DNA of 64,000 nucleotides from Sulfuricella sp. (GTDB lineage Bacteria > Pseudomonadota > Gammaproteobacteria > Burkholderiales > Sulfuricellaceae). The stretch is from contig JAHFRP010000005.1 in NCBI GenBank assembly GCA_023266195.1, positions 124,001 through 188,000 on the forward strand, read 5' to 3'. The translations under genes were made by a program, and so were the position numbers. Of this stretch, positions 2,510-19,874 are shown piece after piece. Numbering within the stretch: position 1 is the stretch's first letter; every line of letters begins with the position of its first letter. A model generated the notes under the pieces. It did no database searches. It had not been told where the DNA came from and saw only the letters and a program-made list of their open reading frames with translations.

Positions 2510-2767
2510 CATTGGGAAAAGTTCGTTTTGATGAGAGGCCATGTTTCGGGGTGATAAAATCCTGAATGGCGCGTTTCCATCGCCTTTCCTGATAAATCGT
2601 CCCTTCGACGATGTGTTTTTTCGGAACGATGGCGCTGGTGTCGTATAAACCGCTAGGCCTGGTGCCGGGGAGGCGTTGGCCAGTAATCCTGCCGCGGGCG
2701 GTGCGTATCCCCATGCCGCAGTGGGCGGTGCCGGCCAGGGACACGAAGCGATGTCGTTGGACTGGGC
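2510..2767. other. Non-coding stretch, no recognisable gene
   Basis: Between the rpoH operator and the MITE. Small open frames exist on both strands but lack ribosome-binding sites and recognisable motifs. It probably holds the distal part of the rpoH promoter region; nothing else is seen. Confidence 0.5.
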
Positions 2768-2935
2768 CTAGGAGCCTGTCGGACTTAAAGGAAATCAGCT
2801 GTAAATCCGCCTGACCGGCCCATATTTCGCCGCTTTTTTGGTCAATAGAATAACTATTGACCTGCAAAACCGGCAAAATCTGTCCTCGCCCAGCCGAATT
2901 TTCGCTTCGATTCTTCAAGTCCGACAGGCTCCTAG
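2768..2935. mobile_element. MITE-like element with 19-bp perfect terminal inverted repeats
   Basis: The 19-mer CTAGGAGCCTGTCGGACTT (2768-2786) is repeated perfectly inverted at 2917-2935, giving a 168-bp element too short for a transposase. Both ends abut CTAG, which could be a target-site duplication. A degenerate copy lies at about 9471-9632 and a single end at 31865-31889. Internal sequence read from the right end (minus strand) could code LKNRSEN..., also found in the second copy, which suggests descent from one element. Confidence 0.75.
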
Positions 2936-3067
2936 ACCTAGACAAGGTGGAGCAGAATGTTTGCGCGCAGCTACGTGATGGCGCAGTGGAACGGCCGCTT
3001 GTTCATGCCTTGCTGAAAAGTTGTGAGAATGCCAATGCGAGGGGTTTTTGTTCGAAGAGAGTAGAGT

Positions 3068-3092
3068 CGGCAAGCGCTTGGCGCGCTTGCCG
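3068..3092 (-). terminator. Hairpin downstream of the first glycine-zipper peptide gene
   Basis: CGGCAAGCG / CGCTTGCCG, a 9-bp stem with a 7-base loop, 20 bases after the stop codon. There is no U-tract, so it may be a Rho-assisted or mRNA-stabilising hairpin. A related GGCAAGC...GCTTGCC hairpin follows the paralogous gene at 8684-8714. Confidence 0.6.
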
Positions 3093-3111
3093 TGCTATCG
3101 GAGATGCCCGA

Positions 3112-3357
3112 TTACAGTTTGATGCTGACGCTCACGCCGCTAAGCAGACCGCCGACCAAGCCGGTCACGGTGCCGAGGATGCCGCCGGCCAAGCCGGTCA
3201 CGGTGCCGAGGATGCCGCCGACCAAGCCGGTCACGGTGCCGATAGCACCAAAGACCGTGCCGAGGATGCTGCCCAAACCTAGGTCCACGCTCACGCTTGC
3301 AGAAATGCCACCGGACACCACTTCGATTTCTTGCTTGTTCAGTTCCAGAATTGCCAT
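3112..3357 (-). CDS. Double-glycine-leader glycine-zipper peptide 1 (bacteriocin-like)
   Basis: 81 residues. An N-terminal secretion leader of 17 residues, MAILELNKQEIEVVSGG, ends in the GG site cut by C39 peptidases. The 64-residue core is cysteine-free, very hydrophobic and nearly uncharged. It contains three tandem 11-residue units close to GTVTGLVGGIL, giving an extended GxxxGxxxG zipper. The cognate exporter (adaptor, C39-ABC, outer-membrane channel) lies directly upstream, and a paralogue with an almost identical leader begins at 8961. Closest functional analogy: the paired glycine-zipper toxins (CdzC/CdzD) of contact-dependent inhibition in Caulobacter; this is inference from architecture. 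Ribosome-binding site AAGGAGG precedes ATG; the 5' leader is about 155 nt. Confidence 0.88.
   Translation of the reverse strand: MAILELNKQEIEVVSGGISASVSVDLGLGSILGTVFGAIGTVTGLVGGILGTVTGLAGGILGTVTGLVGGLLSGVSVSIKL
3151..3249 (-). repeat. Three tandem 33-bp repeats inside peptide gene 1
   Basis: Units at 3151-3183, 3184-3216 and 3217-3249. The first two differ at one base; the third diverges at its end. Each encodes one 11-residue glycine-zipper unit. The same unit occurs twice in the paralogous gene (8764-8829). Confidence 0.9.
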
Positions 3358-3391
3358 GATATTACCTCCTTAGAATTGACGATAATTTATT

Positions 3392-3432
3392 GCCGCCAAA
3401 GGCGACCCCCCCATTGCGTTATTACACACAAT
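3392..3432 (-). promoter_or_regulatory. Two leader hairpins upstream of peptide gene 1
   Basis: Proximal hairpin 3392-3406 (6-bp stem, 3-base loop) and distal hairpin 3413-3432 (ATTGTG/CGCAAT on the transcript, 8-base loop). Both lie in the 5' untranslated leader and have positional counterparts at 8995-9034. Where the two leaders differ in the stems, pairing is kept (G-C versus G-U), which argues for selection on RNA structure. Confidence 0.6.
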
Positions 3433-3521
3433 CCCCTATTGCACGAAAACCGCGTCTTTATTAAGAGCGCGCATTCCGACGTGCCGTGCTTGTTTTGATA
3501 TGCGATTATCAATTTCATTAA

Positions 3522-3549
3522 ATTATACATATTTCGCGCAAAGCAACAA
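3522..3549 (-). promoter_or_regulatory. Promoter of peptide gene 1
   Basis: On the minus strand: -35 TTGTTG (3549-3544), 16-base spacer, -10 TATAAT (3527-3522). The same promoter is conserved base for base in its boxes upstream of peptide gene 2 (9140-9167). Flanking A/T-rich blocks are shared too, including an AACAAAAAATTCATG-like block near 3571-3588, a possible UP element or activator site. Confidence 0.75.
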
Positions 3550-3662
3550 TTGAAATTTGGCTCGATCTACATGAATTTTTTGTTACGAACGGCGGCGGTC
3601 AGGCCGGTTTGGACTGGCCCGCATTGCTTTGGCCATCGATGTGATGGGCTGAGGGGCCTTGT

Positions 3663-5117
3663 TTACTGGATTGCCCAGAGGCCGAGCTTGCCGATACTTG
3701 CGGCCAGCTTCAGGCGGGCCGTATGCCATCGGGAGATCGACTTGATACGCTGCTGTTCCGCATTTGCCTGGGCACTCTGGGCATTTAGAGTTTCGAGGAT
3801 GTTGCCGACCCCCGCCTTGTAGCGGCCCTGAGCCACTTTGAACGACGTCCGGGCACTCTTGGCCAGTTCTTCGGCTGCCTTGATGCTTTCGTCCTCGGTG
3901 CGCAGAGTCTGGTAACTCTTCCAGACTTCGAGGATGACCTGCTGGGCGGCGCCGTCGAGTTCGGCCTGCTTGACCTCGGCCTGATCTCTCGCCGCCTGGA
4001 CCCGATAGGAGCGCCCGAATCCTTCGAACAGCGGGATGTTGACTTGAACCCCGATGCTGGCATTTCGAGCATTGATGCCTGTGGGCGTCAGTCCCAGGGA
4101 AGGCGGTTGGTGCAACTGCTCGCTGTGGTTGTACTCCGAGGCCAGGGATATGGTCGGCCGCCCTTCCGCAGTGACTGCTTCGATCTTGGCCTGGGCTGCC
4201 CTGAGTTGCGCCGCCGCCGCAATCAGGGCGGGATGGTTTTGCCGGGCCTCGTCGATCAGCTCATCGACCGGCTTGACGAAATCGGTGTCCGGTAACGTGT
4301 CCCGGCGTTTGGCTAGCACCATGGGTGTGTTGGCGGTAAGTCCCATGGCCGTAGCCAGGGTACCCTGGGCATTCTTTAGTTCCCCTTCCGCGCTGACCCG
4401 ATCCAGTGCCGCCTTGGAGTATGCGGTCTGGGCCTGCAGCTGGTCCGTCAGGCCGCCGATGCCGGCCCGGTACTTGGCCTCGGCTGCAGCGAAGCTCTCC
4501 TTGGCGGCACGTTCGGCTTCACGGCTGGCATCGAGCGTGGCATGGGCCGTCTGGGTGTCGAAATAGGCCTGGGCTGCGGCGACAAAGGCCGCCTGAAGGG
4601 TGGCATCGTGGGCGGCGTTGGCGGCATCGAGCAGTGATCTGGCCTGGTCCAAATTGGCGCTACGTTGGCCGAAGTCGGCCAGCACCAGACTCATTTTTAG
4701 TCCGCCGCTACGAATGGTTGGGCGGACGGTGGAATCGAGAACCGAGTAGTCCTTGTAGCTGGTTCGGGCTTCTTGCCTGGAGGCGTCCAGGGTGGCGGCA
4801 ACAGCTGGCAGATAGGCCGACTTCGCCACCCCGATCTGGGCTGCCTGTAGTTTTGCATTGGCCCAGGCTTGCCTGGATTGGGGGTCATGGCAAAGCGCCC
4901 GCTCCACCGCCTCGACCAAGGCGAGGGGCGTGCCCAGGCTGTCAAAATGACAAGGTTCCTCCTCGTCGGTGGCCGCCTGCAGCATGGCCTTGGCAGGCGA
5001 GGCGGAAATCCCGTCTCGGGTCGCGAAAGGATCAAAGCCCTGAGCGAGTGCCATTGGCGGTATTGCCAACAGCAGCGCTAGGGCCAGGGTGTGCGGGGTG
5101 AGCCGTGGTTCAGTCAT
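3663..5117 (-). CDS. TolC-family outer-membrane channel of the peptide exporter
   Basis: 484 residues with an N-terminal signal peptide (cleavage after about residue 25, ...AIPPMALAQ). The body shows the alternating Ala/Gln-rich long helices and duplicated architecture of TolC/OEP proteins, e.g. a VNIPLFEGFGRSYRVQAARDQ segment and a GRYKAGVGNILETLNAQ segment typical of the second repeat. It would provide the outer-membrane exit duct for the type I secretion complex. ATG at 5117 overlaps the ABC transporter stop (ATGA), showing translational coupling. The open frame continues upstream of this ATG into the antisense of the transporter gene, which is not coding. A second double-glycine peptide gene with its own promoter follows downstream. 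Confidence 0.88.
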   Translation of the reverse strand: MTEPRLTPHTLALALLLAIPPMALAQGFDPFATRDGISASPAKAMLQAATDEEEPCHFDSLGTPLALVEAVERALCHDPQSRQAWANAKLQAAQIGVAKSAYLPAVAATLDASRQEARTSYKDYSVLDSTVRPTIRSGGLKMSLVLADFGQRSANLDQARSLLDAANAAHDATLQAAFVAAAQAYFDTQTAHATLDASREAERAAKESFAAAEAKYRAGIGGLTDQLQAQTAYSKAALDRVSAEGELKNAQGTLATAMGLTANTPMVLAKRRDTLPDTDFVKPVDELIDEARQNHPALIAAAAQLRAAQAKIEAVTAEGRPTISLASEYNHSEQLHQPPSLGLTPTGINARNASIGVQVNIPLFEGFGRSYRVQAARDQAEVKQAELDGAAQQVILEVWKSYQTLRTEDESIKAAEELAKSARTSFKVAQGRYKAGVGNILETLNAQSAQANAEQQRIKSISRWHTARLKLAASIGKLGLWAIQ

Positions 5118-7279
5118 GCCACTGCGCCATCGGCCTTCAGACGCTTGATTGCGCTGGAGGTGGCGGACGTGCCGTCGTCCGCCACCTTGCCGTCGGCCAG
5201 AACGATGACACGGCCGGCCGTGGCGATGGTTTCGGGGCGATGGGCGACGATGACGCGGGTTACGTTGAGGGCCTGGATGGCGGCATTGACCATGGTTTCC
5301 CGCGCGATATCCAGATGGCTGGTGGCTTCGTCGAGGAACAGGATCTTTGGGCGCTTGTAGAGCGCCCTGGCTAGTAGGATGCGCTGCTTCTGGCCGCCGG
5401 AAAGGGCGGCGCCCATGTCGCCGATCAAGGTGTTGTAGCTCATCGGCATGGCCACGATTTCGTCGTGGATGGCGGCCATCCGGGCGCACTCCTCAACCCA
5501 GGCGTGGTCGGTCAGGTGGTCGAAGAAGCAGATGTTGTCGGTGATGGAGCCGGCAAACAGTACGTCGTCCTGCATCACCGTGCCTACCATGCCGCGCAGG
5601 GTGTCGATCCCCACCTGGCTGACACTGATGCCGCCGATGAGGACGTCGCCCGCGTTCGGGGTGCGGATGCCGAGCATGGCGTTGATCAGGGTGGACTTGC
5701 CGCACCCGGAGGGGCCGACGATGGCTACCGACTCGCCGGCGGCGATCTTGAAGCTCATTCCATCCAGCACCCAAGGCTCTTGGTCGGCATAGCGGTAGCA
5801 GAGGTTGGTGACTTCGATGCTCGCGTCGATGGGTTCTTCGCTGCCGGTGACCACCCGTTTTTGCTGGGTGTCTTCCGGTTCGGCGAGCACGATGTCGGCC
5901 AGGCGCTCACCCTGCAGGCGAAGCATTTTCATTTCAACCAGCTTGTCGATGAGGGCGCTGACCCGGCCATCGAACTGATCCTTGTAGGCGCTGAAAGCCA
6001 TCAGTACGCCGACCGTGAAGTTGCCGTCGAGCACCAGCTTGGCGCCCAGCCAGATGATCACGATTCGCTCCAGTCCGAACAACACGCCGTTGAGCAGGCG
6101 GTAGAGCACTTGCAGTTTCTGGCTGCGCAGGTCCGCGTTGACCTGGTCCACCAGCAGGGTCAGCCAGCTGGAGCGGCGCTCGTCCTGGCGCTGAAACAGC
6201 TTGATGGTCTTGACGCCGCGCACCGTCTCCAGAAAGTGGCTCTGCTGCTTGGCGGCGTGGATGATCTGCTCTTCCGTGGCGTTGCGCAAAGGCTGGAACC
6301 ACGCCCAGCGCCCCAGTCCGTAGAGCACCATGGCGCCGACCGCCACCCAGGCCAGGCTCGGGCTGTAGATGAACATCATGACCAGGGTCACCAGGGTCAT
6401 GACGCCGTCCAGGATGCCTTCGACGAAAGTGGTGGTCAGGGTTCGCTGGATATTGTCGATGGCGCTGAAGCGCGATACCACGTCCCCCAGGTGGCGCTTC
6501 TCGAAATACTCCACCGGCAGGCGCACCAGGTGCGTGAAGACGTTGGCCCGCCACTGGACGTTGAGGGTGGTGGACATGTGCATGATGACCCAGGAGCGGA
6601 TGGTGCCCACCCCCTGCTGCATGAACATGAGGAGGCCGAAGCCGATGGCCAGCGTGGTCAGGAGATCCCGGTCGGCGGAGACGATGACGTTGTCGATGAC
6701 CCACTGGAGAAAGAACGGGCTGACCAGGGCGAACACTTCCAGGGCGGCGGCCAGCAGCAGGATCTGGCCGAACGAGCGGAACAGTCCGGTGACATGCCCC
6801 ATCATTTCCGTCAGCTTGATGCGCTGCTTGAAGGTGACCTGCTTGAATCCGGTGTTGGGCCAAAGCTCCAGGGCGACGCCGGTGAAGGCGTCGGAGACCT
6901 CGTCCAGGGGCAGCTTGCGCAGGCCGAAGGCAGGGTCGTGAATGGTGATGGTCTTGCCCTTGACTTCCTTGAGGACAACGAAATGGTTGAATTTCCAGTG
7001 CAGGATGCACGGCAGCCTCAGTTGCGGCAGGTCTTCCAGTTCCAGCTTAACCGGCCGGGTAGCCATGGACAGGGCATTGGCCATCTGGATCAGGTGGCCG
7101 AGGGTGGTGCCCTTGATGGATACCAGGAACAGGCGGCGCATGGTCGCCAGATCGGTGCGGAAGCCGTGATAGCAGGCCACCATGGCGAGGGAGGCGAGGC
7201 CGCACTCGGTCGCTTCGGTTTGCAGGATCAGCGGTAGTTTGCGGCCGAAGCCGAAGGAAAGGTCGTCAAGAAAGGACAT
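5114..7279 (-). CDS. Peptidase-containing ABC transporter (C39 peptidase, bacteriocin exporter)
   Basis: 721 residues. The N-terminal C39 cysteine-peptidase domain (1-130) keeps Gln20, Cys26 (TECGLAS), His99 (NHFVVL) and Asp115 (HDPA), so leader cleavage should be active. Six membrane segments span about 160-440. The ATPase domain has GPSGCGKST, LSGGQKQR and ILFLDEATSHLD. In this family (CvaB, LagD, CdzA type) the protein cuts the double-glycine leader and exports the core peptide. It lies 18 bases after the adaptor gene and overlaps the channel gene by 4 bases, forming one operon. Substrates are evidently the two flanking glycine-zipper peptides. Confidence 0.95.
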   Translation of the reverse strand: MSFLDDLSFGFGRKLPLILQTEATECGLASLAMVACYHGFRTDLATMRRLFLVSIKGTTLGHLIQMANALSMATRPVKLELEDLPQLRLPCILHWKFNHFVVLKEVKGKTITIHDPAFGLRKLPLDEVSDAFTGVALELWPNTGFKQVTFKQRIKLTEMMGHVTGLFRSFGQILLLAAALEVFALVSPFFLQWVIDNVIVSADRDLLTTLAIGFGLLMFMQQGVGTIRSWVIMHMSTTLNVQWRANVFTHLVRLPVEYFEKRHLGDVVSRFSAIDNIQRTLTTTFVEGILDGVMTLVTLVMMFIYSPSLAWVAVGAMVLYGLGRWAWFQPLRNATEEQIIHAAKQQSHFLETVRGVKTIKLFQRQDERRSSWLTLLVDQVNADLRSQKLQVLYRLLNGVLFGLERIVIIWLGAKLVLDGNFTVGVLMAFSAYKDQFDGRVSALIDKLVEMKMLRLQGERLADIVLAEPEDTQQKRVVTGSEEPIDASIEVTNLCYRYADQEPWVLDGMSFKIAAGESVAIVGPSGCGKSTLINAMLGIRTPNAGDVLIGGISVSQVGIDTLRGMVGTVMQDDVLFAGSITDNICFFDHLTDHAWVEECARMAAIHDEIVAMPMSYNTLIGDMGAALSGGQKQRILLARALYKRPKILFLDEATSHLDIARETMVNAAIQALNVTRVIVAHRPETIATAGRVIVLADGKVADDGTSATSSAIKRLKADGAVA

Positions 7280-7297
7280 GGGAAGTCGTCGATAGGG

Positions 7298-8569
7298 TCA
7301 AAGTTTGCCGGTGAGACTGTAAAGCGGTTCCAGCACCCACTCGTAGAGGTGCCGGGTATCCTGCAAAACGTCGGCATCGAGCAGCATGCCGGCTTGCAGG
7401 GGCTGGCGTTGCCCATAGGCCATGACGCTCTGCTGTGCCAGATCGACGGTGATGCGATAGAGCGGTTCGCTGTTTTGCCCGTTGCCGCCGGCGAGATTGC
7501 CGAGCGCCGAGATCTCGTTGGCGGGCAGGGCGGTCTTTGATACTGACACTACCGTTCCCCGTGCGTGGCCGAATTTCTGGTAGGGATAGGCCTGGTAGCG
7601 CATCAGCGCGGTATCTCCCGGCTTGATGAAGCCCACCGCCTTGCTCGGGGCGTAGAGATGGGCCTGAAGTCTGGCCCCGCCGGGAACGATGCTGACCAGG
7701 GGGCGGGAGCCATCCTCCATCTGGCCGACTTCGGCCACTACCGCGGTGGCCGTGCCGGATTCCGGCGCGGTGATCACCAGGCGCCGCTTGGCTTCGCTCT
7801 CGGCCAATTCCTGGCCAACGCTGGAAATGCCGCGATCGATCTGGGCCAACTGGTTCTGCTGTTTCAGCGCCAGGCTCGACAATTCGCTCTTGCGGGTGGC
7901 CAGTTCCCGTCCGACGGAGATGAGTTCGCGCTCGATGCTTTGCAGGCGAGCCCGCTGGTCAAGAGTCTCTTCCTGCTTTTGCTGCACCTGTTCCTTTGAA
8001 ATGTAATCCTGTGCCAGGAGCCCCTGATAGCGAGCCACGCTATCCTCGGCCAGCTTGACCCGGCTGCGCTGGCCCTCGATGAGACTCTGGAGTTTTTGAC
8101 CCTCGGCTTGCAAGCCGTCGACGCGCTTCACCAGCATTTCCCGCTCGTCCTGTTGGAGCCGTCGCGTCTTGTCCATTTCTTCCTGCAAAGATTCGCGGCG
8201 CGACTCCACCTGCTTGCTGATCGCGGCCTGGATCTGGCCCTGGGTGCTGCTCTGGCGTTCGCTGGACAGGATATAGAGCACATCGCCCGTCTTGACCGAT
8301 TGCCCTTCGGCGACATGTTTTTCCAGAACAATGCCGATTTGGGGCGCATAAACCTTGACCAGCCCGGTATCCGGCACGAGCTGGCCGATGACGGTACTGC
8401 GTTTGGTGTAGGTTCCCCAGATGAGGAAGGCGGCGACGATGAGGGCGCACAGGGCGGCCGCGGCGGTCAGGAAGCTGTATGTTACGGGGCGGATCAGTAT
8501 GATCTCGCCCAGCCATTTGGTCTTGTTGGCGTTGACGGCTGCGGCGCGGTAGAGCGGCTGTTCTTTCAT
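7298..8569 (-). CDS. HlyD-family periplasmic adaptor of the peptide exporter
   Basis: 423 residues. A short cytoplasmic N-terminus is followed by one membrane anchor (about residues 30-52) and a split lipoyl/barrel-sandwich domain (VYAPQIGIVLEKHVAEGQSVKTGD). A long coiled-coil hairpin spans about 105-265, and a C-terminal beta domain (ITAPESGTATAVVAEVGQ) follows. It bridges the ABC transporter and TolC-type channel, as CvaA/MchE/CdzB do. First gene of the three-gene exporter operon, with its own promoter at 8617-8646. ATG at 8569 is preceded by a close AGGA. Confidence 0.92.
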   Translation of the reverse strand: MKEQPLYRAAAVNANKTKWLGEIILIRPVTYSFLTAAAALCALIVAAFLIWGTYTKRSTVIGQLVPDTGLVKVYAPQIGIVLEKHVAEGQSVKTGDVLYILSSERQSSTQGQIQAAISKQVESRRESLQEEMDKTRRLQQDEREMLVKRVDGLQAEGQKLQSLIEGQRSRVKLAEDSVARYQGLLAQDYISKEQVQQKQEETLDQRARLQSIERELISVGRELATRKSELSSLALKQQNQLAQIDRGISSVGQELAESEAKRRLVITAPESGTATAVVAEVGQMEDGSRPLVSIVPGGARLQAHLYAPSKAVGFIKPGDTALMRYQAYPYQKFGHARGTVVSVSKTALPANEISALGNLAGGNGQNSEPLYRITVDLAQQSVMAYGQRQPLQAGMLLDADVLQDTRHLYEWVLEPLYSLTGKL

Positions 8570-8616
8570 GTCCTGAGATATTAACCGGGCTTGTCTGGTG
8601 TCGGCAAGCGCGCCTT

Positions 8617-8646
8617 ACTGTAGAAAACTTTGCGTGGAGATGTCAA
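8617..8646 (-). promoter_or_regulatory. Promoter of the exporter operon
   Basis: Minus strand: -35 TTGACA (8646-8641, consensus), 18-base spacer, -10 TACAGT (8622-8617). Start near 8610, about 40 nt before the adaptor ATG. It would let the exporter be made independently of peptide gene 2. Confidence 0.65.
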
Positions 8647-8660
8647 CGCGGGGAGGGGGA

Positions 8661-8739
8661 GGGCGCACCCCAGAGTGCGCCCCGGCCGGCAAGCACTTGT
8701 CGCGCTTGCCGGCCTAATCGGATAAAACTTATCCGATTA
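8661..8739 (-). terminator. Three successive hairpins between peptide gene 2 and the exporter genes
   Basis: In transcript order: an 11-bp stem with 3-base loop at 8739-8715 beginning in the stop codon (TAATCGGATAA / TTATCCGATTA); an 11-bp stem at 8714-8684 (GGCCGGCAAGC / GCTTGCCGGCC); and a GGGCGCAC/GGTGCGCCC stem around 8681-8661. No U-tract follows any of them. Likely partial termination or 3'-end protection of an abundant peptide mRNA. Confidence 0.65.
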
Positions 8740-8961
8740 CAGGTGAAGGCCGCCGAGCAAGCCGCCGAGCAAGCCGGTCACGGTGCCGAGAACGCCGCTG
8801 ACCAGGCCGGTCACGGTGCCGAGCAGGCCGCCGACCAGATCCAGTACCGGCTTCAGCAGGCCCAGAACCGGGGTCAACAGGGAGCCCAGCAGGCCGCCCA
8901 GATCCAGGGCGCCACCAGACACAACGGCGATTTCTTGCTTGTTCAGTTCTTGAATTGCCAT
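8737..8961 (-). CDS. Double-glycine-leader glycine-zipper peptide 2 (bacteriocin-like)
   Basis: 74 residues. The 17-residue leader MAIQELNKQEIAVVSGG differs from that of peptide 1 at two positions and ends in the C39 cleavage GG. The 57-residue core is cysteine-free and dominated by Gly, Leu and Val. It has a PVLGLLKPVLDLV segment, then two GTVTGL-type 11-residue units, ending GGLLGGLHL. As with CdzC/CdzD, two related but unequal glycine-zipper peptides share one exporter; they may act together. It lies upstream of the exporter operon with its own promoter and structured leader. A pore-forming or surface-aggregating role is inference. Confidence 0.88.
   Translation of the reverse strand: MAIQELNKQEIAVVSGGALDLGGLLGSLLTPVLGLLKPVLDLVGGLLGTVTGLVSGVLGTVTGLLGGLLGGLHL
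8764..8829 (-). repeat. Two tandem 33-bp repeats inside peptide gene 2
   Basis: Units at 8764-8796 and 8797-8829, related to the three units of peptide gene 1; each encodes one 11-residue zipper unit. Confidence 0.8.
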
Positions 8962-8994: not shown

Positions 8995-9034
8995 GCCGCC
9001 CCTTGGCGGCTGCTATTGCGTTTCTACACGCAAT
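8995..9034 (-). promoter_or_regulatory. Two leader hairpins upstream of peptide gene 2
   Basis: Proximal hairpin GCCGCC (8995-9000)/GGCGGC (9005-9010) with a 4-base loop, and distal hairpin ATTGCG (9015-9020)/CGCAAT (9029-9034) with an 8-base loop. Same order and spacing relative to the start codon as in the leader of gene 1. Confidence 0.6.
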
Positions 9035-9139
9035 CCCTTGTGGCACGGAAATCGCCCCCTTCCAAGACGATTCCCAACGTGCGGTGTATGTTTTGATTTT
9101 TGTGAAACATCGCATCGATGCGGTTATCATTTTCAGCAC

Positions 9140-9167
9140 ATTATACATATTCAGCGAAAAGCAACAA
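9140..9167 (-). promoter_or_regulatory. Promoter of peptide gene 2
   Basis: Minus strand: -35 TTGTTG (9167-9162), 16-base spacer, -10 TATAAT (9145-9140); start near 9133, about 170 nt before the ATG. Boxes and flanks are conserved with 3522-3549. The conserved block ends near 9207. Confidence 0.75.
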
Positions 9168-9207
9168 TTGAAATTTGGCCGGGTTCCCATGAATTTTTTG
9201 TTACGAT

Positions 9208-9470
9208 GGGTGGGCGCTCAAATCCGCCTCCGACTGCACGTTGCCACGCCAACGCCGGAGCTCTATATGAGGTTGTGCGGTGAGGCTTCCCGATCCGCAT
9301 GGCCACATAATCTATGGAACCCTTGAACGGGTTGGCGCATAATGGCTGCTCGGTTCGCTACAGTCTTTTGCTGCTGTGGTAAGCGGGAAGCGTGTTTAGA
9401 TTGGTGCCGATTGGTTCTGCGCACTTTAATTCTGCCGGCGCTTTGTGGCGGCGGGGCATGGCGCCTGAGT
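9208..9470. other. Intergenic region between peptide 2 promoter and the repeat
   Basis: No convincing gene on either strand. It presumably holds promoter elements of the divergent sensor kinase gene, but no clear -35/-10 pair was identified. Confidence 0.4.
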
Positions 9471-9632
9471 GTTAGGAGACGGCCGGACTTGAAGAATCGC
9501 AGTGAAAATTTGGTCGAGCATGGGCGGTTTGTGGCGATTTTGCCCGGTAACGGTGATTCTGTTGCCCGAGAAGGTGGCGAAGCGTGCGCCGGCCAGGCAA
9601 ATTCGCTCCCGGCTTCCCCGGCGTCTGGCAGC
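9471..9632. mobile_element. Degenerate copy of the 2768-2935 MITE-like repeat
   Basis: The left end TTAGGAG...GGACTTGAAGAATCGCAG matches the outer end of the first copy with a few changes. Similarity continues as scattered blocks (GAAAATT, ATTTTGCC, GATTCT, GCCGG.CAGGC). The distal end is poorly preserved. Orientation is opposite to the copy at 2768-2935, so the two bracket the peptide/exporter locus in inverted arrangement. Confidence 0.55.
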
Positions 9633-9701
9633 CTTGCGGATTCTGTGCACCTGAGCGCCGCACGTCGTGCACCGTTGCGTTCGGTCAGCGACTTTCCCAG
9701 C

Positions 9702-12278
9702 ATGGCTTTTTTCTTCCGTAGTTTTGTCCACTTCCCGTTGTTCGCGGTGTGGGCATTGGCGGTTGCCGCCGGCTACGTCATGGAGTCCGGATTCAAGATC
9801 CAGATCGGAGCGCTTGCTCATGAGGCACTCGGCGGTTTTCAGCGGGAGTTGCGGCAGGCTGGAAATTCGTGGGAGGAGAGTCTGGCCGGACACAAGCTTC
9901 CCGCTTCGGCAGCGAGACTATTCCAGCCGGTAACGGGCGAAGGGCCCGAGTATGTCTTGGTGAGCTCCCGCAACATCGTGCTTCGGGCGCCCCGCCAGGA
10001 TATGGTGGGTGCAACGGCGGATGAATACTTCGGGCCACAGATTCTGTTGCTTGCCGCCAAGGCCCGGCTGGACGAAGAAGTGGCTGCAAACTCGGCGGGC
10101 GATGAGCTTCTGGGGGTTTACCCCCTTCGCGGCAGCGTGCTGGGCGAGGGCCATGCGTTGCTTGTCGCCCGGAGGAATCTTGCGCCCCAGTTGCCCGCCC
10201 TCGTAAAAGCGCACCAAAAAGCCATGGGCTACCTCTTGACGGTGACGTTATTATTGTCCGTCCTGCTCGGAATGCATGCGCTGCTTTCAACGAATCGCCG
10301 CCTGGCCCGCATCGGCGCGGCCATGGCGCGCTTCGCCGAGGGTGAATCCGGTGCCCGCGCGAGCTTGGCGGGCAGCGACGCCATTGCCTGGCTGGGAAAA
10401 CGATTCGATGCCATGACGGAACGAATGGCGCGCGAGCGCAGGAATCTTGCCGAAAGCGAGGAACGGCTCAAATTTGCGCTGCATGGCAGCAACGCCGGTA
10501 TTTGGGACTGGCGGATGGATAGCGGTCACACCTATTATTCGCCCCGCTGGAAGAGCCTGCTCGGGTTTGCCGAAGACGAGTTGCTGGCGCATGCTGAAGA
10601 ATGGTTGAAACGAGTCCATCCGGACGACCTCCCCCGTGTCATGGGACTTCTGAATGCGCACATCAGCGGGAAAAGCGAATTTTTTGAGAGTGAGCACCGC
10701 TTGCGCCGGAAGGACAGCAGCTACCTGTGGGTTCTGGAGCGCGGCACCGCCATCCGCGACCAGGGTGGAGTCTATCGCATGGTCGGTGCCCTGACCGATA
10801 TTTCCCGCCGAAAAGAGGTGGAGTCGGCCTTGCAGCGCAGTGAGGAAGAATATCGCTCTGTTGTCGAAGGGGTTACGCAGGTTATTTTCAGGAGCGATGC
10901 CCAAGGTCGTCTCACCTTCCTCAATCCGGCCTGGGGCGAACTAACCGGTTTTTCCGTGGAGTCCAGCCTTTCCCGCTTGCTGGGCGATTTTGTCTTGGAG
11001 GATGATCGGAGCAAGGCTCGAAAGTTGTTCCAGGCCGTTAGCGGAGGTACGTCAGAAACGGTCGAGGGCGAGTTCCGCCTGGTCGGTCGCGAAGAAACGG
11101 GCCGTTGGTTCAGCCTGCATGCCCGCGCCATGCGCGATGGCGGGGTGGTGACCGGTATCGCGGGCGTGTTGACCGATATCGATGCCCAGAAGAGTGCCCA
11201 GAATGCCCTAACCCGGAGCAATAACGAACGCAAAGCCATTCTTGATGTGAGCCCGGATGGTTTTGTGTTCATCGACCACGAACTCAATGTGGCCTACGTA
11301 AACCCCGCCTTCCTCGCCATGACTGGTTTCGGCGCTGCGGATTTGGAAGGCCGGAGCCTCGGGTCGCTGGAGCTCCAATTGGGCGCGCTGTGCGATGAGA
11401 AAAAACCGCTCCCGGCTTTCGCCGCGGCGGCTGATGACGGCGAAATCCTGTATCTCGCCCGGCCCGAGAAAGCGGTTCTGAAATTGTTGGTCCGGACCAT
11501 TCGCGATGAGTCTGAGGATGCGCAGGGGAGTGTCATGTACTTTCGTGATGTGACGCGCGAGACCGAGATCGACCGCATGAAGAGCGAGTTTCTGTCCACC
11601 GCGGCGCACGAGCTGCGCACGCCTATGGCAAGCATCTACGGCTTTTCCGAGCTTTTGCTGGCCCGCGAGTTTGACGCAGCCACCCAGCGGGACCTGATCC
11701 AGACCATTCATCGCCAGACCAGGAATCTCATCGATCTGGTCAATGAATTGCTGGATCTGGCCCGCATCGAGGCCAGGGGCGGCAAGAGTTTTAAAATCCA
11801 GGAACAGGAAGTGGCGCCGCTCGTGCTCAATGCCGCAGCATCCCTATATATACCCGCAGAAACGCACAGCATGGAGGTGGACCTGCCAAAGGATCTTCCT
11901 ATTGTGCGTGTAGATGCCGAGAAATTTCGACAATGTCTGGCCAACGTGCTGAGCAATGCCCTCAAATACTCTCCCGCCGGCGGCGCAATCAAGGTTTCGG
12001 CGTCCACCAAGCGTAGCGCCAAGGGGCAGGAACTCGTTGGGGTAACGGTGCAGGATCAGGGGATCGGCATGACTTCGGAACAGGTGGCGCATATATTCGA
12101 CCGCTTTTATCGCGCCGATGCCTCCGGCGCCATTCCCGGCACCGGACTGGGGATGTCGCTGGTCAAGGAAACCATGGAAATTCTCGGCGGCGAGGTGACC
12201 GTCAACAGCGTCCCGGGCCAGGGTACGGAGGTGAGCCTGTGGCTGCAGGCCGTCCGCCCCGCCAGGAAAGCGGCGTGA
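9702..12278 (+). CDS. Membrane sensor histidine kinase with HAMP and three PAS domains
   Basis: 858 residues from the ATG at 9702. The frame stays open 120 codons further upstream but there crosses the degenerate repeat, so that part is not native. Seen: TM1 (about 6-28), periplasmic sensor, TM2 (about 175-195), HAMP (197-250), PAS 1-3 (about 250-370, 370-505, 505-620). HisKA follows with FLSTAAHELRTPMAS (His about 634), then HATPase with N box (NVLSNALKYS), DQGIGM and GTGLGMSLV. It likely phosphorylates the receiver protein starting 8 bases downstream. It lies between the glycine-zipper locus and the Tad operon; which of these it controls is unknown. Confidence 0.88.
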   Translation: MAFFFRSFVHFPLFAVWALAVAAGYVMESGFKIQIGALAHEALGGFQRELRQAGNSWEESLAGHKLPASAARLFQPVTGEGPEYVLVSSRNIVLRAPRQDMVGATADEYFGPQILLLAAKARLDEEVAANSAGDELLGVYPLRGSVLGEGHALLVARRNLAPQLPALVKAHQKAMGYLLTVTLLLSVLLGMHALLSTNRRLARIGAAMARFAEGESGARASLAGSDAIAWLGKRFDAMTERMARERRNLAESEERLKFALHGSNAGIWDWRMDSGHTYYSPRWKSLLGFAEDELLAHAEEWLKRVHPDDLPRVMGLLNAHISGKSEFFESEHRLRRKDSSYLWVLERGTAIRDQGGVYRMVGALTDISRRKEVESALQRSEEEYRSVVEGVTQVIFRSDAQGRLTFLNPAWGELTGFSVESSLSRLLGDFVLEDDRSKARKLFQAVSGGTSETVEGEFRLVGREETGRWFSLHARAMRDGGVVTGIAGVLTDIDAQKSAQNALTRSNNERKAILDVSPDGFVFIDHELNVAYVNPAFLAMTGFGAADLEGRSLGSLELQLGALCDEKKPLPAFAAAADDGEILYLARPEKAVLKLLVRTIRDESEDAQGSVMYFRDVTRETEIDRMKSEFLSTAAHELRTPMASIYGFSELLLAREFDAATQRDLIQTIHRQTRNLIDLVNELLDLARIEARGGKSFKIQEQEVAPLVLNAAASLYIPAETHSMEVDLPKDLPIVRVDAEKFRQCLANVLSNALKYSPAGGAIKVSASTKRSAKGQELVGVTVQDQGIGMTSEQVAHIFDRFYRADASGAIPGTGLGMSLVKETMEILGGEVTVNSVPGQGTEVSLWLQAVRPARKAA

Positions 12279-12754: not shown

Positions 12755-12919
12755 ATGTGGCATTCAATAGTCAAATTTGTCCGTAACGAAGAAGGCGCGA
12801 CCGCAGTCGAGTACGGCCTGATCGCGGCGTTGATCGCGGTGGCGATTGTTACTGTGGTAACGAACTTGGGCAGCCAACTGGTTGTTATCTTCCAGAGAAT
12901 CCTCACTGCAATCAGCTAG
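12755..12919 (+). CDS. flp: Flp/Fap-type major pilin subunit
   Basis: 54 residues, the usual size of Flp prepilins. The short charged leader ends in EEG, followed by ATAVEYGLIAALIAVAIV: cleavage after Gly14 by the prepilin peptidase, Glu at mature position 5 and a hydrophobic assembly helix. Ribosome-binding site AGAGGAG, eight bases before ATG. First gene of the Tad operon; it forms the adhesive Flp fibre. Confidence 0.95.
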   Translation: MWHSIVKFVRNEEGATAVEYGLIAALIAVAIVTVVTNLGSQLVVIFQRILTAIS

Positions 12920-13036
12920 GGGCGGGTGGCGGTGGCTGTTTCGGCAAACGGCCGCAAGCCGATGAGTCGGGCCGCCGTTCTTTGACTCCCTGTTCTGGCG
13001 AGGAACGCAGGGGTTCGGCTGGTTGAGGGCGCTGGC

Positions 13037-13522
13037 ATGATCGCGCAGTTGGCTGTAATTGTCTGGGCGGGCGGTTTGGCCTACGAGGATTGGCGATGGC
13101 GGCGTCTCCCCAATGCCTTGCTGGCGGCGGGGGCGGCGCTGGGCTTGGCGCATTGGGCCGCATACGGCGCCATGCCTTTCGGGGCGCCGATGTCCGAAGG
13201 GGCTGTGGCGGCGGCATTGGGTTTGGTGGCGCTGTTGCCCTTTTATCGGGCGGGCTGGATGGGCGCCGGGGATGTAAAGCTCAGTGCCGTGATCGGCTGG
13301 TTGGGCGGGATGCAGGTATTGCTGGCGGTGTTTTTCGCTGCGTGCATCGCGGCCGGGGTATTTGCCGTTCTGCTGCTCAGCCCGACTTGCCGCCGCTTTA
13401 TGGGCGACCGCAGCCTGGAGCGGCGACTGGGGAGGCGCGTTCCTTTCGGCGTCGGCCTGGCGGTCGCGGTCATGGTGCTGGCGGCAGGCGGGCTCGTTCA
13501 AGGCGGGTTCCGTTTCTGGTAG
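13037..13522 (+). CDS. tadV: A24 prepilin peptidase of the Tad system (TadV/CpaA)
   Basis: 161 residues with about five membrane helices and the two catalytic aspartates of A24 peptidases: YEDWRWRRLPN near the N-terminus and MGAGDVKL (GxGD-type) in the middle. It removes the leader from Flp and from TadE/TadG-type pseudopilins. The size matches short CpaA/TadV enzymes without an N-methylation domain. ATG 13037 follows GGTTGAGGGCGCTGGC, a weak ribosome site. Confidence 0.9.
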   Translation: MIAQLAVIVWAGGLAYEDWRWRRLPNALLAAGAALGLAHWAAYGAMPFGAPMSEGAVAAALGLVALLPFYRAGWMGAGDVKLSAVIGWLGGMQVLLAVFFAACIAAGVFAVLLLSPTCRRFMGDRSLERRLGRRVPFGVGLAVAVMVLAAGGLVQGGFRFW

Positions 13523-13536
13523 CAAGAGGGGGTGGC

Positions 13537-13989
13537 ATGACTGACGGACGGTTTGGGCGGGAATCCGGGGGGAGGGGCCGCCAGCACGGCGCCGCGGCGG
13601 TCGAATTCGCCTTGGTGTTCGGCATGTTTTTCGTGGTCATGTATGGGATTGTTGCTTACGGCGTCGTCTTCGCCGTCAAGCATTCCATGACCCAGGCCGC
13701 CAATGAGGGCGCGCGCGCCGCGGTGAAGGATGTGGGCGATGGCAGCATAGGCGCCCGCACGGCACTGGCCAAAACTGTCGCCACCAATGCCATCGCGTGG
13801 CTGGGCGCGCGGGCGCCGGTGCCGGAGGTCACGTCCGGCGCCTGTTCCGGCACCCCTTATACGTGCGTGACGGTGACGCTAACCTATAACTACGCCGCAA
13901 ATCCCATCGTGCCTCCGCTGCCGGGATTGGGTGTCGTTCTCCCGGCCACGCTCAAGGCGCAGGCGACAGTGGAAGTGGATGAAACGTAG
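13537..13989 (+). CDS. tadE: TadE-like minor pseudopilin
   Basis: 150 residues. N-terminal GAAAVEFALVFGMFFVVMYG matches the TadE prepilin-like motif with Glu five residues after the processing region and one membrane helix. The periplasmic part has one Cys pair (GACSGTPYTCVTV). The frame is open far upstream, but that region overlaps tadV; ATG 13537 with a GAGGGGG ribosome site is preferred. Needed for Flp pilus assembly. Confidence 0.88.
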   Translation: MTDGRFGRESGGRGRQHGAAAVEFALVFGMFFVVMYGIVAYGVVFAVKHSMTQAANEGARAAVKDVGDGSIGARTALAKTVATNAIAWLGARAPVPEVTSGACSGTPYTCVTVTLTYNYAANPIVPPLPGLGVVLPATLKAQATVEVDET

Positions 13990-14033
13990 TTGAGTGGGCG
14001 GCGACGGAGCCGAATTAGGAAGGGGAGACTGAC

Positions 14034-15005
14034 GTGGGCAAAACGCAAAGAATAATTGGGGCGGTGTTGATCCTGGTGGCCCTTGGGCTCGCCGGCTACG
14101 CCTGGGTTCTGAGCCAGCGCATGACCGCCAAGCAGGAGGTGGCGCAGATGCAGATGCAGGCGGTGGTCGTCGCCTCGGCGCGCATCCCGGCCGGTAGCCC
14201 GATTGCGGCTGGAATGGTGCGCTCGGCAATGTTCCCGGCCCGTCCGGAGGGAGCCTATTCCGACGTCACGGCGGTGGTGGGGAAAGTTACCGCCTCCGAC
14301 ATCGCGGCTGGCGAGCCGCTGCTTCGAGAACGCCTGGAGGGGGCTTCTCGTCCCGTGCTGCAGCATCTCGAACCGGGACGGCGGGCCGTTGCCGTGCGCG
14401 TGGACGACGTGATTGCGGTTGGCAATCGTCTGAATCCAGGCGATTTGGTCGACGTTTATGTCACCTTGCGCCGCAACAATGAGGAAATTCCGGATACCCA
14501 AAGTCGTTTGCTGCTGGAGAAGCTCCCGGTGCTTGCTTTCGGCGCCAAGGATGTGCCTGTTGCCAAGGGCGGAGAAGGTGGGCCCGTGACCCGGACCACG
14601 TCTGAGGTTCCCAAGACCGCGGTGCTGGCAGTCAAGTTGGAGGATGTGGATAAGTTGGCCTTGGCAGCCGACAGCGGGCGTTTGCTTCTGGCGCTTCGCC
14701 CCCACGAAAACCCCGGGGAAATCGGCGCAACGGCCACTCCCCCGCCAACAGGAGGCGAAACAAAGGTTGATGGCGCCAAGCAGTTGGCTGACGCCGCATC
14801 CCAGACCAAGCCTCTGCCGGCAGTGTTGACCTTGCGGGATCTGGTCGGGAACGTGAGGGGGACGGAAAGAACGAAAGCCGCCAGCGCCGCAGTACGCGGC
14901 GGCGTCAAGCTTGCCGGTGACATTCCACGCGGAGCGGCGGTCACGGTAATGCACGGTCTGAAAGAAAAAACAATCTATCTGGAAAAAACCGGGGCACGGC
15001 CATGA
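14034..15005 (+). CDS. cpaB: Flp pilus assembly protein CpaB/RcpC
   Basis: 323 residues, GTG start with an AGGAAGGGGAG ribosome site. One N-terminal membrane anchor, then an SAF domain (about 40-110; ARIPAGSPIAAGMV, ASDIAAGEPLLRERL) and the RcpC domain typical of the family (VAVRVDDVIAVGNRLNPGDLVDVYVT). A periplasmic component that supports the secretin. It overlaps the secretin gene by 4 bases. Confidence 0.92.
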   Translation: MGKTQRIIGAVLILVALGLAGYAWVLSQRMTAKQEVAQMQMQAVVVASARIPAGSPIAAGMVRSAMFPARPEGAYSDVTAVVGKVTASDIAAGEPLLRERLEGASRPVLQHLEPGRRAVAVRVDDVIAVGNRLNPGDLVDVYVTLRRNNEEIPDTQSRLLLEKLPVLAFGAKDVPVAKGGEGGPVTRTTSEVPKTAVLAVKLEDVDKLALAADSGRLLLALRPHENPGEIGATATPPPTGGETKVDGAKQLADAASQTKPLPAVLTLRDLVGNVRGTERTKAASAAVRGGVKLAGDIPRGAAVTVMHGLKEKTIYLEKTGARP

Positions 15006-16414
15006 ATGCGACAAAGTACATCAAGAGTGGTGCAGGCGAGCATGATCGGAACGGAGCCGGAGCGGGCATCTCGGGCATCGTCAGGAATGTCCTGGGTTCC
15101 CGTCCAGCGGCGGTGCTCGCGCTGATGGTTCTTTTTGCCGGCACGGGAGTGGCGGCGGAAGACACCCTGCTCGAAATTTCAGCCGGCAGCCAGCGCGTAT
15201 TAAAGCTGGAGAAGCCGGCCAGGCGGGTTGCCGTGGGCAATGGCGAAGTGGCTGAGGCCAAGGTGTTGAACAGCCAGGAACTCCTGCTTCAGGGCAATAA
15301 GCCGGGCGAGACCAGTCTTCTGCTCTGGACGAAAGGAAATGCCCAGCCCCGGAGTTTCCGGCTCCAGGTGAACAAGGCCACCGGAGCGTCGCCGTGGTTG
15401 GCCGGCGACGGGCTAAGCCTCAAGTCGTCCGGGGAATTGCTGATTCTGGAGGGCGCCGCATCGGACATGAAGGAGCACGAGCGCGCCAGGGAGATTGCGC
15501 AGCATGCCGGCGGCGACGGCAAGAGCCCTTTGCTGGACGCGGCGCAAATGAGTTTTGGCGGCCAGGTGCAGGTCGACGTCCGGGTGGTGGAATTCAGCCG
15601 GAAAGTATTGAAGAAGGCGGGGCTCAATCTGCTTTCGAATACCTCGGGCTTCACCTTCGGCACCTTCGCACCCGGCAGCCTGACCAAGGTTACCCTCACG
15701 AATGGCGCCATCAGTACGGAATCCAACCTGCCCGTCAGTCAGGCATTTAATCTCCTGGCTGGCTTTCCTTCCAGCGGCGTGCTCGGCGTTCTCGGCATGC
15801 TGGAGAACAACGGCTTTGCCCGCACCCTCGCTCAGCCGGTGTTGGTGGCGCAAAGCGGCCAGGCGGCCGATTTTCTGGCCGGTGGGGAGTTCCCCGTGCC
15901 GGTGCCCCAATCTCTTGGCCAGACGACGATTCAGTACAAACCTTTCGGTATTCGGCTCGAAGTGTCGCCGACGGTAATCTCCGGGAATCGTATCGCCCTC
16001 AGGGTCGCGCCGGAGGTAAGTGACCTGAATTTCGATAACGCCATAACCATCAACGGTATTTCCGTACCTAGCCTGTTGACGCGCCGGGCGACCACCAGCA
16101 TAGAGTTGGGTAATGGTGAGAGCTTCGTCATCGGCGGCCTGGTCAGTCAGAATGTAATGAAAAACGTCGATAAAATTCCTGGCCTGGGCGACTTGCCGGT
16201 GCTGGGGATGTTTTTCAAGAACGTGAGCCTGGCGCGTGAAGACAAGGAGCTGGTGTTTATCGTGACGCCACGCCTGGTTCGTCCTTTGGCGGCAAATGCC
16301 GATCTGGGCCCGATGCCCGGTGCCGACAGGGCTAATTACAACCCGAGTTTGTGGAACATGTTGATGTTGTCGGATGACAACGAGGCGGCTCGTTATACCG
16401 GCCTGTCCCAATAA
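15002..16414 (+). CDS. rcpA: Tad secretin (CpaC/RcpA), outer-membrane pore
   Basis: 470 residues. Hydrophobic signal segment about 38-52, an N-terminal pilus/secretin domain (LEISAGSQRVLKLEKPARRVAVGNGE), a BON-like segment, and a C-terminal secretin domain. The latter includes ASGQ-type VAQSGQAADFLAGGEFPVPVPQ and RRATTSIELGNGESFVIGGL, then VPGLG-like IPGLGDLPVLGMFF. Forms the outer-membrane channel for the Flp pilus. The first 35 residues are unusually polar for a signal peptide; a later start is possible. Confidence 0.93.
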   Translation: MNATKYIKSGAGEHDRNGAGAGISGIVRNVLGSRPAAVLALMVLFAGTGVAAEDTLLEISAGSQRVLKLEKPARRVAVGNGEVAEAKVLNSQELLLQGNKPGETSLLLWTKGNAQPRSFRLQVNKATGASPWLAGDGLSLKSSGELLILEGAASDMKEHERAREIAQHAGGDGKSPLLDAAQMSFGGQVQVDVRVVEFSRKVLKKAGLNLLSNTSGFTFGTFAPGSLTKVTLTNGAISTESNLPVSQAFNLLAGFPSSGVLGVLGMLENNGFARTLAQPVLVAQSGQAADFLAGGEFPVPVPQSLGQTTIQYKPFGIRLEVSPTVISGNRIALRVAPEVSDLNFDNAITINGISVPSLLTRRATTSIELGNGESFVIGGLVSQNVMKNVDKIPGLGDLPVLGMFFKNVSLAREDKELVFIVTPRLVRPLAANADLGPMPGADRANYNPSLWNMLMLSDDNEAARYTGLSQ

Positions 16415-16427
16415 ACCAGGACTGATC

Positions 16428-17627: not shown

Positions 17628-17637
17628 GAGGTTTTCG

Positions 17638-18945: not shown

Positions 18946-19858
18946 ACTGAACGTCGTCATGGCCATGACCATGGTCAGTCTGGTGATCGCTGCCCTGTTC
19001 CTGTGGAAAAGTGGGACCGAGAGGCAGCGCCAAGCGACCAGTCAGAGGCGACTGAATGAAGCGTTGGCTCGGGTCGAATCTCCCAGCGAATTCAATGCCT
19101 CCTCTTCGTCCGATACCTGGCGCTCTGCATGGCTGGAAAACTGGCTGCATCGTGCCGGTCTGACACCCGGTCAACAGGTCTATGTTTGGCTGGCGATTCC
19201 CGCGTTGTTTCTCGCGTTTGGCGCGGGGCTTGTTTTTGGATTCAAGGCCGGAGCGGCTGGGCTGTTTGTGGTTTACCCCGTTGGCCTGACGGTGTTCATG
19301 CATTGGCGAATAGAGGCTTTTCGTAACCGGGTGGTTGCCCAATTGCCGGACTTTCTCGATTCGGTGGTGCGCATCCTCAGCATCGGGTGCAGCCTGGACC
19401 TTGCGTTCCGCAACGCCTACGAGGATAGCAGGGACCCACTGAAGGGAATTTTCTCTCAGGTGTTGTTGCGCACCCACGCCGGCACGTCCCTGGAAGACGC
19501 CCTAAACCAGGTGGGCGAGACCTGCGCCGTGAAAGAGATCAAGTTCATGGCGGCTATCTTTTACTTGGGTATGCGCTACGGCGGCAATGCACAGGTGATA
19601 CTGGAACGTATCGCGCTTACCATGCGCGAGCGCGAGCGGGGACAAAAGGAGCTGCATGCAATGACATCGGAAACTCGTGCCAGCGCCTGGATACTGAGTG
19701 CATTGCCGATCGTAGTCGGTGGGATGACCATGTTCACCAATCCGGATTACCTGCTCGGCATGTGGCGGGACGAAATTGGGCGGCAGCTGCTCCTGGTGGC
19801 GTGCGGCTTGCAGATATTGGGCATGTTCTTGCTGTTCCGCATGGCCAAGATAAAATAA
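18938..19858 (+). CDS. tadB: Inner-membrane platform protein TadB
   Basis: 306 residues from GTG 18938, chosen because GGAG lies six bases upstream; a TTG four codons earlier is the alternative. Type II secretion F domain (VAQLPDFLDSVVRILSIGCSLDLAFRNAYED, then GTSLEDALNQVGETCAVKEIKFMAA), N-terminal membrane helix, a central pair and two C-terminal helices. It partners with TadC as the membrane platform of the pilus motor. Confidence 0.93.
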   Translation: MLELNVVMAMTMVSLVIAALFLWKSGTERQRQATSQRRLNEALARVESPSEFNASSSSDTWRSAWLENWLHRAGLTPGQQVYVWLAIPALFLAFGAGLVFGFKAGAAGLFVVYPVGLTVFMHWRIEAFRNRVVAQLPDFLDSVVRILSIGCSLDLAFRNAYEDSRDPLKGIFSQVLLRTHAGTSLEDALNQVGETCAVKEIKFMAAIFYLGMRYGGNAQVILERIALTMRERERGQKELHAMTSETRASAWILSALPIVVGGMTMFTNPDYLLGMWRDEIGRQLLLVACGLQILGMFLLFRMAKIK

Positions 19859-19874
19859 TCCGGAAGGCGATAGC

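What the first reader, a model, noticed from the sequence alone, without database searches (positions are those of the whole stretch)
3112..8961. Cdz-like locus: two glycine-zipper peptides flanking a complete C39-ABC/HlyD/TolC exporter
Seen: two paralogous small genes with near-identical 17-residue double-glycine leaders and cysteine-free cores built of GxxxG units. Between them lies a full exporter whose peptidase keeps Gln20, Cys26, His99 and Asp115. Known: contact-dependent inhibition in Caulobacter uses two glycine-zipper proteins (CdzC/CdzD) exported by such a system. Inference: this is a betaproteobacterial relative with a different repeat-built core (11-residue period) and a peptide gene at each end of the exporter operon.
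Basis: partly seen in the sequence, partly recalled or inferred. Interest (0 to 1): 0.85.

Follow-up and report, generated by a model that had tools for sequence, protein, structure and literature searches.

The report
Greasy helical peptides with private exporter
A relative of the sulfur bacterium Sulfuricella, and some methanol-eating bacteria, carry a compact gene set that makes very greasy, glycine-faced helical peptides and a dedicated machine to push them out of the cell; they probably coat or aggregate on the cell surface, and whether they also kill neighbours is open.

Summary
Two paralogous double-glycine precursors (74 and 81 aa) lie at the two ends of a complete C39-ABC/HlyD/TolC operon, and the four named peptidase residues are present. 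Related sequences change the interpretation. The peptides belong to a small family (14 collected), seen in these searches only in Sulfuricella and Methylophilaceae. The ten exporters found with them form one clade (100/99). Nine of those ten loci show a single peptide gene, so the two-peptide layout is a duplication (promoter, 5' hairpin, gene, downstream hairpin), absent at this site in the nearest relative. The 11-residue repeat is a local form of a more general feature: a helix-like hydrophobicity period of 3.45-3.6 residues in all 14 cores. No immunity-type gene is shared by the ten loci, but that scan discriminates weakly. The peptides evolve under purifying selection. I favour a surface-retained, self-associating helical peptide, comparable to double-glycine biofilm peptides. 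Cdz-like contact killing is the main rival. The peptides largely meet published Cdz-like features, but homology to CdzC/CdzD and any killing are untested.

The parts
8737..8961 (-). pepA: 74-aa precursor, 17-aa leader MAIQELNKQEIAVVSGG, 57-aa core
   Evidence: orthologue 92% identical in Sulfuricella sp. STA_41
3112..3357 (-). pepB: 81-aa paralogous precursor, leader MAILELNKQEIEVVSGG, 64-aa core with 11-residue units
   Evidence: absent at this site in STA_41
7298..8569 (-). hlyD: periplasmic adaptor, 423 aa
   Evidence: Pfam HlyD_3 2.2e-11
5114..7279 (-). abc: C39 peptidase-ABC exporter, 721 aa, catalytic residues present
   Evidence: Pfam PF03412 8.8e-34, PF00664, PF00005; residues
3663..5117 (-). 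tolC: outer-membrane channel, 484 aa, ATGA overlap with abc
   Evidence: Pfam OEP 1.6e-60 (run with two extra codons at the start); start
9140..9167 (-). pepA promoter-like site TTGTTG-16-TATAAT
   Evidence: conserved in pepB and STA_41
3522..3549 (-). pepB promoter-like site TTGTTG-16-TATAAT
9015..9034 (-). 5' UTR hairpin of pepA; the STA_41 copy has one pair changed on both sides
3413..3432 (-). 5' UTR hairpin of pepB (one G-C replaced by G-U)
8687..8711 (-). hairpin after pepA (terminator or processing stem)
3068..3092 (-). hairpin after pepB

Best explanation
A dedicated type I export system for a very hydrophobic double-glycine peptide. The precursor is made from its own promoter. The C39 domain cuts after the GG and the ABC/HlyD/TolC channel moves the core outside (inferred from family knowledge). 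The 57-64 residue core is read as one long, glycine-faced, nearly uncharged alpha-helix (predicted). It would dissolve poorly in water, so it most likely self-associates by glycine-zipper packing and stays on the cell surface or in an extracellular aggregate (inferred). Its main role is then structural or interfacial (coat, aggregation, biofilm) rather than a toxin needing an immunity gene (inferred, least certain step). In this species the gene exists twice, each copy with its control region, which should raise output.
For: Shown: a family of 14 peptides, with the ten exporters found beside them in one clade (100/99). Cores are 69-82% G/A/V/I/L with 0-3 charged residues and no Cys. Hydrophobicity peaks at 3.45-3.6 residues in 14 of 14 cores (p at most 0.012), with no signal in the beta band. 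AlphaFold2 gives a single core helix, 21-72 in A (mean pLDDT 75.9) and 29-80 in B (63.8). Purifying selection: dN/dS 0.07-0.17 in 7 overlapping pairs of Methylophilaceae peptides, 0.27 for pepA. The Methylophilaceae cassettes are tightly packed with no conserved fifth gene between cassette genes. A leader-only search of the own genome at E up to 10 found only the two. Precedent: EbfG1-4, double-glycine peptides secreted with a C39 protein, enable biofilm (PMC4997328, passages); EbfG1-3 form amyloid (PMC9981879, abstract).
Against: No direct evidence of surface retention or of any phenotype. The immunity argument is weak: the same scan gave what I judge a clear small membrane ORF in only 4 of 12 control loci, and single cassette loci have unshared small membrane ORFs near hlyD (L115 68 aa, L120 56 aa); a 39-aa ORF opposite hlyD is seen in 4-5 Methylophilaceae loci. 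The Cdz authors also found immunity genes hard to identify. Patchy presence (2 of 22 genomes of the family; 8 of 16 genomes with the close lipoprotein neighbour) suits a weapon as well as a coat. CdzC also aggregates on the surface, and kills. AlphaFold2 used 5 rows and pTM is 0.38 and 0.32. The EbfG peptides are reported as amyloid and were not compared by sequence.
Confidence: 0.45

Rival explanations
1. Cdz-like contact-dependent bacteriocin: the exported peptides aggregate on the producer surface and insert into the membrane of touching relatives; immunity is unlinked or provided by the exporter itself.
For: A and B meet the Cdz-like features of length, GG leader and uninterrupted zippers. 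G/A/V/I/L make up 77% and 73% of the cores; the Cdz paper reports 75% Gly plus small hydrophobics (A, V, I) for CdzC/D, so the composition is alike except for the leucines. Accessory distribution. A tad/Flp pilus locus lies next door in both Sulfuricella genomes, and the Cdz paper says many candidate regions carry adhesion genes.
Against: No immunity candidate shared by the 10 loci (weak test); purifying selection on the core; no tad genes in the 8 Methylophilaceae loci searched (7 exporter loci and L116); killing untested.
Confidence: 0.33
2. Conventional diffusible class II microcin or class IIb bacteriocin.
For: Double-glycine leader and C39 exporter. Weak hits to the lactobin A/cerein 7B model (2 of 14 members at E up to 0.1, best 0.0045) and Bacteriocin_IIc (1 of 14, E 0.038). 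Related exporters have other double-glycine peptides nearby.
Against: 0-3 charged and 0-2 aromatic residues in the core, so probably poorly soluble; one peptide gene at 9 of 10 loci, so no obligate pair there; no shared immunity gene (weak).
Confidence: 0.12
3. Secreted signalling peptide.
For: A PAS-domain histidine kinase gene lies beside pepA (9342-12278) and was found at E 1e-150 only in the same 2 of 22 family genomes.
Against: The kinase is divergently oriented and has no counterpart in the Methylophilaceae cassettes; a 57-64 residue greasy core is unlike known short signals (recalled).
Confidence: 0.05

Closest known systems
Cdz system of Caulobacter crescentus (CdzC/CdzD, CdzA/B, CdzI)
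   Same: Small double-glycine peptides rich in glycine zippers and hydrophobics next to a type I exporter
   Different: TolC inside the operon; no shared CdzI-type gene found; one peptide at 9 of 10 loci; in the window the two genes are not adjacent and each has its own promoter; Leu-rich cores. Homology untested.
EbfG1-4/PteB of Synechococcus elongatus
   Same: Small double-glycine peptides processed by a C39 transporter; no immunity gene mentioned in the passages read
   Different: Reported as amyloid-forming (EbfG1-3); cyanobacterial; no sequence comparison made here
Class IIb bacteriocins (lactobin A/cerein 7B family) and class II microcins
   Same: Leader type and C39 export; GxxxG motifs (class IIb, from PMC5380434)
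   Different: Below model cut-offs; long, nearly uncharged core; no shared immunity gene
NHLP and bacteriocin C39-ABC exporters (TIGR03796, TIGR01193)
   Same: Domain order and catalytic residues
   Different: Scores 491 and 348 against cut-offs 853 and 524: related, not members

Membership tests
Cdz-like (features of Garcia-Bayona 2017) | 60-151 residues | tested here: met
   74 and 81 aa; 14 of 14 family members
Cdz-like (features of Garcia-Bayona 2017) | leader ending in G[G/A/S] | tested here: met
   SGG in 14 of 14
Cdz-like (features of Garcia-Bayona 2017) | one or two glycine zippers not interrupted by Pro or charge | tested here: met
   A: 33-residue run, 4 GxxxGxxxG; B: 54-residue run, 7; 13 of 14 members have at least one, L079 none
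[quoted passage not shown]
   B ends SVSIKL; A ends GGLHL; most relatives end mainly in hydrophobics
Cdz system | immunity protein CdzI (3 TM) beside the toxins | tested here: inconclusive
   No small membrane ORF shared by the 10 loci; unshared ones in L115 and L120; clear candidate in only 4 of 12 control loci, so the scan has little power
Cdz system | two peptides, both needed | tested here: inconclusive
   Window has two; 9 of 10 loci show one; 3 genomes have a second gene elsewhere. Need for both is an experiment; the paper itself says most Cdz-like candidates have one
Cdz system | sequence homology to CdzC/CdzD | not testable with these tools
Cdz system | contact-dependent killing, surface retention | not testable with these tools
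   Bench experiment
C39 double-glycine exporter | N-terminal C39 with Gln/Cys/His/Asp, ABC membrane and ATPase domains | tested here: met
Class IIb bacteriocin, cerein 7B (TIGR03949) | score over curated cut-off | tested here: not met
   A scores 13 against 21.5; 2 of 14 members hit at E up to 0.1 (their scores were not shown)

The most novel reading that the evidence does not exclude
A new kind of bacterial surface material: single, long, glycine-faced hendecad helices (11 residues per 3 turns), exported without Sec by a private C39 type I system, which pack through glycine stripes into a helical, non-amyloid coat or fibre at the cell surface or at interfaces.
Probability: 0.25. Interest if true: 0.75.

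Novelty: new variant of a known kind. Interest (0 to 1): 0.5.

Why it matters
Double-glycine peptides of Gram-negative bacteria are often filed as bacteriocins by their leaders. This family offers a clean case to ask whether that is right: typically one peptide at a private tripartite exporter, no visible shared immunity gene, and presence or absence beside the same lipoprotein gene in otherwise similar Methylophilaceae genomes, one of them (Methylophilus sp. Leaf416) a named isolate. If the peptide is structural, many 'bacteriocin' calls need another look; if it kills, immunity must work in a way not seen at the locus.

Tried and rejected
Rejected: (1) Two peptides as an obligate pair: 9 of 10 loci show one. 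(2) 11-residue repeats as the family's defining trait: lag-11 excess is strong in A, B and STA41_A, moderate in Leaf416, G476a and G409b, not significant in the other 8 of 14. (3) A beta reading of the GTVTG units: no period near 2. (4) The lipoprotein beside the Methylophilaceae peptide as immunity protein: homologues in 41 of 150 genomes, 16 of them closely similar (64% or more), and 8 of those 16 show neither peptide nor exporter within about 1.5 kb. (5) The repeat element at 2770-2933 as a special vehicle of pepB: its 17-base ends occur at 97 sites in the genome with up to 1 mismatch. (6) The G191 hit: a 234-aa ORF with a Sec-like start and no GG leader. (7) Latherin as a relative: the only PDB hit, E 1.1.

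Dropped before counts: of 16 of 150 Methylophilaceae genomes matching A2, 8 were kept (match from position 1, leader present) and 8 dropped (matches to the core, or from position 14 in G478, inside open frames of 218-653 aa, one with a stop). Of 5 of 399 order genomes matching A1 only the own one was kept: G099 has a GxxxG peptide with a different leader, G191 was read, G056 and G207 were not inspected. Of 3 of 369 class genomes the two others are core-only with a stop inside. Exporter neighbourhoods: 32 order loci were fetched; peptides were looked for in 20 and, with a stricter leader rule, in 11 loci; L061-L072 were not scanned for peptides. The 12 controls were picked by me from loci where a peptide had been seen.

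No match: plasmids with peptide A; viral contigs with A3. The phage and E. coli collections were not searched. Literature searches: Sulfuricella+bacteriocin, 2 papers, both genome lists; Methylophilus+bacteriocin, 10 papers, listing only; Methylophilaceae+type I secretion+glycine-rich, 0; double-glycine+Methylophil, 0; also listings. No description of this family was seen in those listings.

Full report
What is there. On the minus strand, in order, lie pepA (8737-8961), hlyD (7298-8569), a C39-ABC exporter gene (5114-7279), tolC (3663-5117) and pepB (3112-3357). The exporter is complete by Pfam and its peptidase keeps Gln20, Cys26, His99 and Asp115. NCBIfam places it near the NHLP and bacteriocin exporters, but under the cut-off of each of the 25 best models listed of 202. 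pepA and pepB are paralogues: BLASTP 62%, E 1e-23. Each has an upstream block with TTGTTG-16-TATAAT, a 5' hairpin and a downstream hairpin. The 5' hairpin folds with z of -3.5 to -3.7 in A, B and the STA_41 copy, and STA_41 has one pair changed on both sides. These are three sequences only; the downstream hairpin of STA_41 is imperfect.

Whose it is. The closest named relative is the Sulfuricella sp. STA_41 metagenome bin (L077). It has the locus at the same place, with peptide A 92%, HlyD 93%, ABC 96% and TolC 85% identical; the flanks align, but window 2525-3652, which holds pepB, is replaced by 63 bases. Synonymous divergence is 0.60 between A and B against 0.19 between A and its STA_41 orthologue, so the duplication probably predates the two species and STA_41 lost pepB from this site; genes this short leave that uncertain. 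STA_41 has another, more distant peptide gene on another contig. In the family 2 of 22 genomes have the peptide, and the same 2 have the neighbouring kinase at E 1e-150.

The family. Searches with the peptides found members in Methylophilus sp. Leaf416 and a Methylophilus bin, and in all in 8 of 150 Methylophilaceae genomes (these two included). The cassette is hlyD-abc-tolC-peptide in 7 of these 8 loci; in the eighth (L079) the contig begins inside abc, so hlyD is not seen. All 8 lie next to the same lipoprotein, Sua5 and cupin genes. Two of the 8 genomes have a second peptide with no exporter in the stretches fetched around it. Among 369 genomes of the class only the own one matched convincingly. 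In a tree of 41 exporters the ten found with these peptides are one group, 100/99, one change against 9.0 in shuffles. The nearest other exporters (L041-L044, 68-73% identical) have different double-glycine peptides nearby.

Anatomy of the core. The 14 cores lack cysteine; G, A, V, I and L make up 69-82%, and charged residues number 0-3. GxxxG counts exceed shuffles clearly in A and B, not in STA41_orph, L079 or G409b, and marginally in G525. Hydrophobicity has a helical period in 14 of 14 cores; glycine has one at p below 0.05 in 12 of 14. In pepB the units LVGGILGTVTG / LAGGILGTVTG / LVGGLLSGVSV put glycines 4, 4 and 3 apart in the first two, a continuous stripe on an 11/3 helix (my reading of the sequence). 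AlphaFold2 draws one helix through each core, with moderate confidence and shallow alignments.

Immunity. In the Methylophilaceae cassettes the genes are packed and no fifth conserved gene lies between them; a 39-aa ORF on the opposite strand just upstream of hlyD is recognisable in several of the loci (43-60% identity). A scan for small membrane ORFs with a ribosome-binding site found none shared among the 10 loci, though single loci have one near hlyD (L115, L120); in 12 control loci I judge 4 (L053, L058, L059, L066) to have a clear candidate and 8 not. The absence is suggestive, not strong. The lipoprotein neighbour is not tied to the cassette.

Selection. dN/dS is 0.07-0.17 for seven overlapping pairs of Methylophilaceae peptides (six at the exporter, one of second peptides) and 0.27 for pepA; the four paralogue comparisons run from 0.20 to 0.46. 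Nothing suggests an arms race, but each gene has at most 82 codons.

How it most likely works. Shown: the gene set, intact peptidase residues, the exporter clade that goes with the peptide, helical periodicity, conservation. From family knowledge: cleavage after GG and export through the tripartite channel. Inferred: the mature peptide is too hydrophobic to diffuse well and stays as surface or extracellular assemblies. Least certain: the role. I put a structural or interfacial role at 0.45 and Cdz-like killing at 0.33. Both predict surface aggregates; the co-culture test separates them.

Relation to Cdz. I read passages and section 13 of PMC5380434. CdzC and CdzD are both required, CdzI is a predicted 3-TM immunity protein, TolC is not in the cluster, and most Cdz-like candidates have a single toxin. 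By the feature list this locus would probably have been called Cdz-like; compared with the characterised system it has TolC in the operon and no recognised immunity gene. So: it may work like Cdz; membership is not shown. Six papers in the library mention CdzC and CdzD (listing only).

Precedent for a non-toxic role. EbfG1-4 of Synechococcus are double-glycine peptides whose efficient secretion needs a C39 protein and which enable biofilm (PMC4997328, passages); EbfG1-3 form amyloid and EbfG4 sits on the cell surface and in the matrix (PMC9981879, abstract).

Noticed in passing
window 12755-20813: A tad/Flp pilus locus (Flp pilin, prepilin peptidase, CpaB, secretin, TadZ, TadA, two T2SSF genes; Pfam) begins 3.8 kb from pepA. 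Six of its genes are also beside the locus in Sulfuricella STA_41 but not in the 8 Methylophilaceae loci searched.
   Followed up: partly
window 2770-2933: A 164-bp element with identical 17-bp terminal inverted repeats AGGAGCCTGTCGGACTT; 97 such ends (up to 1 mismatch) in the 3.1-Mb genome, 0 for the reversed control. Looks like a MITE family. A related stretch is at L077 9502-9572 and one end lies near the STA_41 orphan peptide (L084 about 2250, sequence printed).
   Followed up: partly
L002 1363-2913 (G000:C13, about 19.9-21.4 kb): A stand-alone C39 peptidase with a signal-like start beside small Gly/Asn-rich ORFs; resembles FapD and a functional-amyloid (Fap) locus (recalled, not tested).
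   Followed up: no
L074 6916-7620: A 234-aa ORF with a Sec-like start built of GLVGGLVPTVTGLVDG-type repeats, similar to the peptide cores by composition; other core-only matches occur in Methylophilaceae genomes.
   Followed up: no
L059, L066 (G292); L060, L073 (G099); L053 (G133): Burkholderiales-order loci with GxxxG-rich double-glycine peptides; four of them (not L073) beside C39 exporters, and L059, L066 and L053 with small membrane ORFs: better-looking bacteriocin candidates than the window's.
   Followed up: no
window 9118-9213 and 3500-3595: A 96-bp block, 82% identical between the two genes, that extends upstream of the promoter-like hexamers: possible activator site.
   Followed up: no
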